Source: Yersinia mollaretii ATCC 43969
GTDB lineage: Bacteria; Pseudomonadota; Gammaproteobacteria; Enterobacterales; Enterobacteriaceae
Direction: 5' to 3'
Assembly: GCF_013282725.1 (NCBI RefSeq)
Contig: NZ_CP054043.1
Coordinates: 1,922,001-1,986,000, forward strand
Length of the DNA: 64,000 nt
Shown: positions 20,224 to 22,347 of the stretch, one piece after another
Numbering within the stretch: the first letter of the stretch is position 1
How the letters are laid out: every line of letters begins with the position of its first letter
Translations under genes and position numbers: made by a program
The notes under the pieces: generated by a model
Databases searched by the model: none
The model's input: the letters and a program-made list of their open reading frames with translations, nothing else
Told to the model about the DNA's origin: nothing

Positions 20224-21132
20224 ATGTTTAAGCAACTTCAGGATATGGCACTGTTTGCGCGAGTTGCCGAGTGTGGCAGCTTTACCCGTGCGGCTGAAAT
20301 GGCCGATTTGCCGAAATCGAGTGTCAGTAAGCGCATCAGTCAGTTAGAGCAAAATCTGGGGATTCGGTTGATCAATCGCACCACTCGTCAGTTGAATCTG
20401 ACCTTTGCGGGTGAGCGCTATTTGGTGCACTGCCAAGAGATGTTGCAGGCGGCTGAGCGCGCGGATCTGGCACTGCAACGGCTGAAGGATAATCCCAGTG
20501 GCCGCTTGCGTATCTCGACCCCGGCAGGATTAGGTGCAACCTTAGTGGCGCGGCTGGCGACTGATTTTCAGCGGCAATATCCAGATGTGCTGTTGGAGGT
20601 TTTGGCGTCGGATACCATGGTGGATCTGGTGGAGGAGGGCTTTGATGTGGCGCTGCGCACGGGCAAACCGCAGGATTCGTCACTGATTGGCCGCCGATTG
20701 GGCTACGCCCCGCGCTACCTGTTGGCCTCGCCAAACTATCTGGCGCAGCACCCGCCATTGTCTCACCCCAGCCAATTGGATAAGCACCATTGCATTGCCC
20801 ACCGTGCTTGGCAGGCGCTCATTTTGCGCTGTGAAGGTGAGTTTTACCGCTGGCAAGTGCCGATGCAGCATGTCACGGATAACCTGCTGTATGCCCGCGA
20901 ATGTGCCCTTGCAGGCGGGGGGATCACGCTACTCCCTGCTTTTTTAAGCCGTGAAGTAGTGGCAAACCGTCAGCTTATTGAAGTGTTGCCCCAATGGCGG
21001 CCTGAAGGGAATGAGCTGTATTTGGTATATCCCAGCCGCAAATTAAACTCCCCCGCCTTGAGCTGTTTTATTGATGTGGCGATTGGGCACCCGGTCTTTG
21101 GGGATTATGTGCAAGGGCTGGAAATCTCTTAG
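20224..21132 (+). CDS. LysR-family transcriptional regulator
   Basis: 302 residues. The N-terminal winged HTH (about 1-60: CGSFTRAAEMADLPKSSVSK, then RISQLEQNLGIRLINRTTRQ) is followed by a periplasmic-binding-like effector domain (GRLRISTPAGLGATLVAR). It is divergent from the MDR dehydrogenase gene and probably controls it through the shared 102-base intergenic region; the inducer cannot be told. The stop is immediately followed by the palindrome array of the next gene. Confidence 0.88.
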   Translation: MFKQLQDMALFARVAECGSFTRAAEMADLPKSSVSKRISQLEQNLGIRLINRTTRQLNLTFAGERYLVHCQEMLQAAERADLALQRLKDNPSGRLRISTPAGLGATLVARLATDFQRQYPDVLLEVLASDTMVDLVEEGFDVALRTGKPQDSSLIGRRLGYAPRYLLASPNYLAQHPPLSHPSQLDKHHCIAHRAWQALILRCEGEFYRWQVPMQHVTDNLLYARECALAGGGITLLPAFLSREVVANRQLIEVLPQWRPEGNELYLVYPSRKLNSPALSCFIDVAIGHPVFGDYVQGLEIS

Positions 21133-21195
21133 TGAGCCGAATATACTGCTTATTCGGCTCATATTATGAGCCGAATAGAGTCGATAACCGGCTCA
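21133..21195. promoter_or_regulatory. Double-palindrome array upstream of the Fic gene
   Basis: Four 11-base sites alternate in direction: TGAGCCGAATA at 21133, its exact inverse TATTCGGCTCA at 21151, TGAGCCGAATA at 21167, and TAACCGGCTCA (two mismatches) at 21185. Both inverted pairs have a 7-base spacer, so two 29-bp palindromes repeat with a 34-bp period. They begin one base after the LysR stop and end 21 bases before the Fic ATG. The layout is that of a cooperative operator. Confidence 0.75.
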
Positions 21196-21216
21196 TTCTC
21201 AATACGGGAGAGAGTG

Positions 21217-22347
21217 ATGAACGAAAACCTATGGGTGTGGCAACATGAGAAGTGGCCCCATTTTTACTGGGATGATGCGCTTATTCAGCCTCAGCTACGC
21301 AACACCCGGTTTAAGCTCGGGCAACTCCTCGGCGAAAACAGGGGGAATACCTCTACTGAAAGCGCCTCAAAAACCTTAGATATGCTTTTGGCGAATATTG
21401 TTGCGTCATCAAAAATAGAGAATGAGCAACTTAATATCAGGTCGGTGCGTTCATCGCTGGCAAAAAAACTCGGGATGACGTGGGAGGTAAGTGACCCGAC
21501 GTCTGATCGCTCTGATGGTTTGGCCGCCATTATGCTCGACGCCATTAATGAATGTCATGCGGACTTAACGCTGGAACGATTGTATCAATGGCATGAATGG
21601 CTATTCCCCAATGACCCATGGGTCCTGAATCCTATCAAGGCGGGCCAATTGAGGGGGGGTGAACCTATGCAGGTAGTTTCTGGCCGAATGGGCAAGGAAC
21701 GGGTTCATTTTGAAGCACCACCTCGCGAGGTTTTATTTGCGGAGCTAACACAGTTTATCCATTGGTTTAATGTGTCTCGCATTGAGAATGCTGTTGATCC
21801 ACTGTTGCGAGCGGCAATCGCGCATTTTTGGTTTGTCACTTTGCACCCGTTTGAAGATGGTAATGGCCGTATTACCCGAGCACTGACCGATATGGCACTA
21901 TCACAGGCGGACAACCAAAGTATTCATCTTTACGCTATGTCAGTTGCCATCCTTGAAAACCGAGATGGGTATTACGCTATTTTGGAAAAGTGCCAACGTG
22001 GCGGTCTGGATATTACCCCTTGGTTACTCTGGTTTATCGCCACTCTGGAACAGAGTTTAGATCAGGCATCTGAGCAGGTTCGCGCGACATTGGCTAAAAA
22101 TCGTTTCTGGTTAAAGCACAATGGCAGTGGGCTGAGGGTGGAGCAAATTAAAGTGCTTAATCGTCTGCTAGATGGGGGTGAAAACGGCTTTGCTTTAGGT
22201 ATCAATGCCTCTCAATATCAAAAAGTCGCGAAAGTCAGTAAAGCGACAGCGACCCGTCATCTCGCAGAGTTATTGGCGCGTGAGTGTATTGAAAAGCTAC
22301 CGGGGGAGGGGCGGAGTACCCGATACCGAGTGAAGTATCCAGAGTGA
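21217..22347 (+). CDS. Fic-family AMP transferase with N-terminal DUF4172-like and C-terminal winged helix
   Basis: 376 residues from ATG 21217, which follows GGGAGAGAG; the in-frame ATG at 21166 lies inside the palindrome array. The N-terminus (WVWQHEKWPHFYWDDAL) is the DUF4172-type module. SSKIEN at 64-69 fits the class II inhibitory motif S-x3-E-N. The active-site loop HPFEDGNGR is at 210-218. A C-terminal winged helix (VSKATATRHLAELLARECIE) suggests DNA binding. Fic enzymes transfer AMP or similar groups to protein hydroxyls; the target is unknown. The intact inhibitory and catalytic motifs suggest a working, self-inhibited enzyme. Confidence 0.88.
   Translation: MNENLWVWQHEKWPHFYWDDALIQPQLRNTRFKLGQLLGENRGNTSTESASKTLDMLLANIVASSKIENEQLNIRSVRSSLAKKLGMTWEVSDPTSDRSDGLAAIMLDAINECHADLTLERLYQWHEWLFPNDPWVLNPIKAGQLRGGEPMQVVSGRMGKERVHFEAPPREVLFAELTQFIHWFNVSRIENAVDPLLRAAIAHFWFVTLHPFEDGNGRITRALTDMALSQADNQSIHLYAMSVAILENRDGYYAILEKCQRGGLDITPWLLWFIATLEQSLDQASEQVRATLAKNRFWLKHNGSGLRVEQIKVLNRLLDGGENGFALGINASQYQKVAKVSKATATRHLAELLARECIEKLPGEGRSTRYRVKYPE

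What the first reader, a model, noticed from the sequence alone, without database searches (positions are those of the whole stretch)
21133..21195. Two tandem 29-bp palindromes form an operator-like array directly before a Fic protein with its own winged helix
Seen: four 11-base sites, TGAGCCGAATA, inverse, TGAGCCGAATA, inverse (two mismatches), with both inverted pairs having a 7-base spacer and a 34-base period, filling the space between the LysR stop and the Fic start. Known: Fic enzymes with N-terminal inhibitory motifs are self-inhibited AMP transferases. Inference: the Fic protein, which ends in a winged helix, binds this array and represses or senses its own synthesis, possibly with AMPylation changing DNA binding. 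A self-regulating Fic switch of this form is not one I know to be described.
Basis: partly seen in the sequence, partly recalled or inferred. Interest (0 to 1): 0.72.

Follow-up and report, generated by a model that had tools for sequence, protein, structure and literature searches.

The report
Self-repressing Fic enzyme's conserved operator array
A protein-modifying Fic enzyme appears to switch off its own gene by binding two mirror-image DNA sites in its promoter; one distant relative was already known to do this, but here the same site layout recurs in front of related genes from several bacterial phyla and its letters track the enzyme's DNA-reading helix.

Summary
The array is real and as described: two 29-bp palindromes (21133-21161, 21167-21195; half-site TGAGCCGAATA, 7-bp spacer, 34-bp period) between a lysR stop and a class II Fic gene (DUF4172-Fic-winged helix). 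It is conserved: 91 of 98 non-redundant orthologue loci carry such palindromes upstream (shuffles 0.7 of 98, coding control 0 of 98), and 34 bp is the prominent repeat lag. Half-site letters follow residues 342-343, the start of the Fic recognition helix (KA with TGAGC, R342 with TGAG[TG], KP with TGAT, D343 with TGCG); one of the two ranks first among all protein columns in three of four tests. So the Fic protein very probably reads the array. Predicted -10 boxes lie inside it, so repression is likely. In 6 of 8 other genomes the site occurs only twice, both before fic.

The principle is published: CccR, a distant Fic-winged-helix protein, represses itself (PMC9755527); CbFic2, the closest solved structure, changes activity on DNA (PMC10628234). 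New here, as far as seven searches show: the tandem layout, its breadth and the code. No binding was measured; independent evolutionary switches are few; AMPylation as control of binding is untested.

The parts
21133..21161 (.). Palindrome 1 (29 bp; half-sites 21133-21143 and 21151-21161, spacer 7 bp)
   Evidence: conserved in orthologues
21167..21195 (.). Palindrome 2 (29 bp; half-sites 21167-21177 and 21185-21195, right arm with two mismatches), 34 bp after palindrome 1
   Evidence: 34-bp lag in orthologues
21119..21124 (+). Possible -35 hexamer TGGAAA
   Evidence: consensus scan only
21142..21147 (+). Possible -10 hexamer TATACT inside palindrome 1
   Evidence: kept in L006, L007, L008
21206..21214 (+). 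Possible ribosome-binding site GGGAGAGAG
   Evidence: read by eye
21217..22347 (+). fic, 376 aa: DUF4172 (6-87), Fic (117-228), C-terminal winged helix
21406..21423 (+). Inhibitory motif SSKIEN (residues 64-69)
   Evidence: sequence; S64, S65, I67, E68 invariant in 18 aligned proteins
21844..21879 (+). Fic motif HPFEDGNGRITR (residues 210-221)
   Evidence: sequence; H210, P211, D214-R218, R221 invariant
22240..22278 (+). Recognition helix, residues 342-354 (KATATRHLAELLA); K342 and A343 track the half-site letters
20224..21132 (+). LysR-type regulator upstream; not part of the switch
   Evidence: found at high identity only in loci of the same genus

Best explanation
The array is the operator of the fic gene. 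A dimer of the Fic protein, joined through its DUF4172 domain, places one winged helix on each half-site of a 29-bp palindrome; two tandem palindromes take two dimers. Bound protein covers the -10 region and represses transcription, so Fic holds its own level low. Shown by comparison: the array is conserved, is dedicated to fic in most genomes scanned for it, and its letters follow the Fic recognition helix. Inferred: physical binding, repression rather than activation, one dimer per palindrome, occlusion of the promoter.
For: Conservation: at least one palindrome in 91 of 98 loci, 0.7 of 98 in shuffles, 0 of 98 in coding stretches, 0 of 15 loci of other Fic subfamilies; lag 34 in 66 of 98 loci; 78 of 80 named loci. 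Covariation (90 loci): TGAGC with K342 in 38 of 38; TGAG[TG] with R342 in 11 of 12; P343 only with TGAT (8 of 8); D343 only with TGCG (22 of 22); these are the first two residues of the predicted recognition helix. Dedication: exactly two sites, both before fic, in 6 of 8 genomes and in this one. Promoter overlap. Precedent: CccR (PMC9755527).
Against: No binding or expression was measured. The site types are clustered on the tree (9 changes at least) with only 2 well-supported independent pairs per contrast, which cannot reach significance. In a fourth covariation test (four types, close relatives) residues 342 and 343 rank only 3 and 10. Exceptions: L050 (KA with TGAGT), L057 (SA with TGAT), L133 (QA with TGCG). 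One representative, L041, has no palindrome under any criterion tried. Orphan arrays without an intact fic exist. CbFic2 bound random DNA tightly (PMC10628234), so specificity is not a given. As RNA the array also folds strongly.
Confidence: 0.87

Rival explanations
1. The palindromes work as RNA: read-through or leader transcripts form hairpins that terminate or attenuate.
For: Folded as RNA, 21130-21240 is more stable than shuffles (z -4.31, 0 of 200 as stable): the two inner half-sites pair.
Against: No terminator-like site and no Rfam match. Half-site letters follow the recognition helix of the protein. The likely -10 lies inside palindrome 1, so a transcript from it would lack the left arm (inference).
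Confidence: 0.06
2. Another regulator, for instance the LysR protein encoded upstream, binds the array and controls fic.
For: LysR is adjacent and codirectional here; regulators often sit beside their targets (general knowledge).
Against: A close homologue of this LysR is found only in loci of the same genus; two other loci have a 35% identical one on the far side. The array persists without it, and its letters track Fic residues.
Confidence: 0.04
3. The palindromes are a dispersed repeat family (REP- or ERIC-like) that happens to lie before fic.
For: Orphan copies remain in genus members without an intact fic (L173, L176, L177, L178, L180) and in one Aeromonas genome (L185-L187).
Against: Two copies per genome, both before fic, in 6 of 8 genomes and in this one. 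Some orphans adjoin fic fragments (L180, L185) or what look like the first codons of fic (L178, L186; by eye), as expected after loss of fic.
Confidence: 0.02

Closest known systems
CccR of Yersinia pseudotuberculosis (YPK_0951, PDB 7XUX; PMC9755527)
   Same: Class II Fic with C-terminal winged helix; binds inverted repeats in its own promoter near the -35 and -10 boxes and represses itself as a dimer (abstract, sections 9 and 11, passages of section 10).
   Different: Only 18% identical to our protein by structure alignment. Its site is AGATAATCAT-N26-ATGATAATCT, two 10-bp boxes 26 bp apart, not tandem 29-bp palindromes at 34 bp. It is a type VI secreted effector beside an effector cluster; nothing of that kind was looked for here.
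CbFic2 of Coxiella burnetii (CBU_0822, PDB 8CIL; PMC10628234)
   Same: Closest solved structure (40% identity), same domains. DNA binding through the winged helix drives dimerisation and shifts it to deAMPylation (abstract, sections 12, 15 and 16 in part).
   Different: Studied with random DNA; a specific site was named as open, and self-regulation was not studied in what I read. Its helix start as printed (TSRTTAYREL) is like that of L122, whose half-site is TGGAGC.
SoFic of Shewanella oneidensis (3EQX) and Sofic anti-phage defence (PMC12249575, abstract and outline only)
   Same: Fic protein with a C-terminal winged helix; PADLOC's SoFic model matches ours (E 1.7e-39).
   Different: 17-18% identical, far below the NCBIfam equivalog cut-off (58.6 of 550 bits). 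The reported partner AS1 is a small downstream gene; here fic is followed by the convergent ettA with about 50 bp between.
Type II toxin-antitoxin modules such as phd-doc
   Same: A toxin gene under control of palindromes in its own promoter (general knowledge).
   Different: No separate antitoxin gene: DNA reader, inhibitory motif and enzyme are one chain.

Membership tests
Class II Fic protein | Inhibitory motif (S/T)xxxE(G/N) N-terminal to the Fic motif | tested here: met
   S64-SKI-E68-N69 before H210
Class II Fic protein | Catalytic motif HxFx(D/E)GNGRxxR | tested here: met
   HPFEDGNGRITR, residues 210-221; Pfam Fic E 1.4e-14
Class II Fic protein | AMPylation activity | not testable with these tools
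   needs an assay
CccR-like autoregulatory Fic-winged-helix protein | C-terminal winged helix on a Fic protein | tested here: met
   predicted helices 331-338, 342-354 and wing strands 358-360, 370-372; match to 8CIL over full length
CccR-like autoregulatory Fic-winged-helix protein | Inverted repeats in its own promoter | tested here: met
CccR-like autoregulatory Fic-winged-helix protein | CccR's own operator geometry (10-bp boxes 26 bp apart) | tested here: not met
   29-bp palindromes at 34-bp period; published geometry from PMC9755527 passage. So it works like CccR but is not a CccR orthologue
CccR-like autoregulatory Fic-winged-helix protein | Repression of its own promoter and direct binding | not testable with these tools
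   only indirect support
CbFic2-like DUF4172-Fic-winged-helix family | DUF4172, Fic and winged helix in one chain, close in sequence and fold | tested here: met
   Pfam DUF4172 E 1.3e-26; 8CIL E 3.8e-96, TM-score 0.84-0.91
CbFic2-like DUF4172-Fic-winged-helix family | DNA-induced dimerisation and deAMPylation | not testable with these tools
   needs an assay
SoFic (NCBIfam equivalog NF046030) | Score above the curated cut-off | tested here: not met
   58.6 of 550 bits
Type II toxin-antitoxin module | Separate antitoxin gene next to the toxin | tested here: not met
   neighbours are lysR and convergent ettA (ORFs of at least 80 aa listed, smaller ones not examined)

The most novel reading that the evidence does not exclude
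The operator is also the enzyme's parking brake. On the array the Fic dimer is at once repressor and in its deAMPylating (off) state, as DNA does to CbFic2. Release from the DNA (dilution, a phage that strips or degrades DNA, or entry of the gene into a cell without Fic) would switch on AMPylation and fic transcription together. The pair would then be a one-protein toxin-antitoxin switch in which DNA is the antitoxin, used in several phyla with a tunable recognition code.
Probability: 0.17. Interest if true: 0.8.

Novelty: new variant of a known kind. Interest (0 to 1): 0.6.

Why it matters
Class II proteins are said to be about 80% of Fic proteins, with little known of their control (PMC9755527 discussion), and the specific DNA site of the CbFic2 type was named as a matter for future study (PMC10628234 discussion). 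This analysis gives a concrete site, layout and residue-to-base code for a widespread DUF4172-Fic-winged-helix family, so self-regulation, and its coupling to AMPylation, can be tested with the predicted true operator instead of random DNA.

Tried and rejected
Chance: rejected. LysR as binder, RNA hairpin, dispersed repeat: see rivals. Wider regulon: in this genome the next best places have 2 mismatches; one (L003) overlaps the start codon of a LysR-type gene that looks like gcvA by eye and was not followed further, since the stricter pattern finds only the two array sites. SoFic membership: not met by NCBIfam although PADLOC's model matches. Plasmid search: 160 records with Fic relatives, best coverage 52% and no record covering 80% of the query; upstream regions there were not examined. 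Literature: brought CccR and CbFic2 but nothing listed on the TGAGCCGAATA array or a family-wide code; the library holds open-licence papers only, and lists were capped (203 papers hold letters of the site, 15 listed, none with Fic in its title).

Rows dropped before counts: of 147 orthologue loci, 5 (L009, L060, L107, L115, L147) for a short frame from the aligned start, leaving 142, cut to 98 below 85% identity. The covariation count uses 90: 7 had no palindrome by the strict rule and L113 lacks the helix. The 15 control Fic loci were not dereplicated, and their start codons were picked mechanically.

Full report
Observation. Searches confirm four half-sites forming two 29-bp palindromes at 21133-21161 and 21167-21195, spacer 7 bp, period 34 bp. 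The array starts at the base after the lysR stop and ends 21 nt before the fic ATG at 21217. In the 4.6-Mb genome the core pattern occurs with 0-1 mismatch only here; 21 places have 2 mismatches. A stricter pattern with up to 3 mismatches again finds only these two.

The gene. The 376-aa product has DUF4172, Fic and a C-terminal winged helix. The inhibitory motif SSKIEN (64-69) and the catalytic motif HPFEDGNGRITR (210-221) keep their key residues in 18 aligned orthologues. The closest solved structure is CbFic2, 8CIL (E 3.8e-96; 39-40% identity, TM-scores 0.84-0.91). CccR, 7XUX, is far (18% identity).

Conservation. Genus: 14 of 25 genomes have a match (E <= 0.001): five with a full-length match of 80% identity or more (own genome included; one of them, G023, has a stop inside), one at 56%, three with fragments, five with other Fic subfamilies only. 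At E <= 1e-40: family 7 of 119, order 63 of 394, class 62 of 369. Of 147 loci 142 had a usable frame and 98 remained below 85% identity.

A letter-free test shows one prominent direct-repeat lag, 34 bp: 66 of 98 loci; lag 68 has 10, other lags 6 or fewer, shuffles about 1. Inverted repeats are commonest at total lengths 27 and 29 (75 and 72 of 98; nested lengths 23-35 also raised), with a second rise at 59-63 (24-35 of 98), which are the outer arms of two palindromes. By motif, 91 of 98 have at least one palindrome (31 one, 52 two, 8 three); 53 of 68 successive spacings are 34 bp and 10 are 53-55 bp. A pair exactly 34 bp apart is present in 46 of 98, never in 20 rounds of shuffles; at least one palindrome occurs in 0.7 of 98 shuffled (largest 2) and 0 of 98 coding stretches, and 0 of 15 loci of other Fic subfamilies in the genus. 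Of the 7 misses, 6 carry a 28-30 bp variant or were cut by my choice of start codon; L041 remains. Over all 147 loci the strict rule finds 134. Among the 80 named loci 78 carry it, with titles from five phyla: Pseudomonadota 70 loci, Bacteroidota 6, Planctomycetota 2, Campylobacterota 1, Bacillota 1. 26 of the 80 are Pseudomonas and several are metagenome bins.

Who reads it. Half-site positions 1, 2, 7, 8 and 10 are nearly fixed (TG....GA.T); positions 3-6 vary most (the criterion itself favours the fixed letters). The variable letters follow residues 342-343, the start of the predicted recognition helix 342-354. Of 90 loci: TGAGC 38, with KA 37 and KS 1; TGAG[TG] 12, with R342 in 11; TGAT 12, with KP 8, SA 2, AA 1, KI 1; TGCG 23, with D343 in 22; TGAA/TGGA 5, with R342 in 5. 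All 8 P343 and all 22 D343 fall in one class each. Residue 343 ranks first of 361 columns overall and first of 364 for TGAG against TGAT; residue 342 ranks first of 362 for TGAGC against TGAG[TG]; in a four-type test on close relatives they rank 10 and 3 of 364. L074 (Acinetobacter), placed among TGAGC proteins in the tree though at a weakly supported fork, has both R342 and TGAGTC. Caution: on a tree of residues 5-300 the site type needs only 9 changes; well-supported independent pairs are 2 per contrast, agreeing in 2 of 2, 2 of 2 and 1 of 2 (the other tied), too few for significance. The rank among columns that share the same descent is therefore the stronger argument.

Context. A close homologue of the upstream LysR occurs only in genus loci; two others (L033, L119) have a 35% identical one on the far side (flanks of up to 1.5 kb). 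Of 8 genomes scanned for the TGAGCC pattern with up to 2 mismatches, 6 have exactly two sites, both before fic; a Pantoea whose array deviates has none; an Aeromonas has six. Orphan arrays: in five genus members (L173, L176, L177, L178, L180; only L180 shows fic fragments by tblastn) and in the Aeromonas (L185 beside a fic fragment; L186 and L187 without a match).

Promoter. In the window TATACT (21142-21147) with TGGAAA 17 bp upstream is the only promoter-like site (0.6 expected by chance). TATACT is kept in L006, L007 and L008 while the spacer of palindrome 2 drifts. Across loci the best -10 lies inside a palindrome in 66 of 91 (31% of positions would qualify), 46 of them at one offset. The arm itself contributes letters there, so orientation is the better test: the spacer ends in [TC]A in 53 of 91 loci, the mirror image in 18. 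In the window the -10 sits at another offset (9, not 16). Repression by occlusion is the natural reading; activation is not excluded.

Geometry (inference). The TGAGCCG centres of one palindrome are 22 bp apart, about two turns and 75 A; CccR's recognition helices are 70.2 A apart (PMC9755527 section 9). CbFic2 was dimerised by 20 bp of DNA but not by 10 bp, and its authors note that the crystal dimer would have to rearrange (PMC10628234 section 15, part 1 of 2).

Known and new. Known: self-repression by a Fic-winged-helix protein (CccR) and DNA-controlled (de)AMPylation (CbFic2). Not found in seven searches: the tandem 29/34 array, its spread over phyla and the code. Seen of the papers: PMC9755527 abstract, sections 9 and 11, passages of 6, 10 and 20; PMC10628234 abstract, section 12, first parts of 15 and 16, passages; PMC12249575 abstract and outline; PMC12894286 and PMC8790059 passages.

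Verdict. A dedicated operator read by the Fic protein itself (0.87), a new variant of a known kind. The parking-brake reading is not excluded (0.17).

Noticed in passing
L173, L176, L177, L178, L180 (genus members): Palindromes of the array survive near ettA in genomes without an intact fic match at that place, as if fic had been lost and its operator left behind.
   Followed up: partly
L011, L012, L015 (genus members): Fragments of fic next to ettA: the gene seems to decay repeatedly in this genus.
   Followed up: partly
L134, L136, L139, L140, L162, L163, L165 upstream regions: In the TGCG class successive palindromes are 53-55 bp apart in several loci, apparently with an extra half-site in between: a second array layout (half-site by eye).
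   Followed up: partly
L185, L186, L187 (genome of L102, Aeromonas): Extra array copies, one beside a fic fragment and one about 0.6 kb from the end of an MFS-type transporter gene (by eye).
   Followed up: partly
L010 upstream of the match: A 56% identical Fic elsewhere in a genus member has, by eye, a TGAT-type array with the same 34-bp period, so one genus holds two operator classes (helix SKP).
   Followed up: partly
L003 (own genome C1:103695-103723): Weak palindrome of the same kind overlapping the start codon of a LysR-type gene that looks like gcvA; possibly chance.
   Followed up: no
21130-21240: As RNA the inner half-sites of the two palindromes pair into a strong hairpin (z -4.31), perhaps relevant to read-through from lysR.
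   Followed up: no
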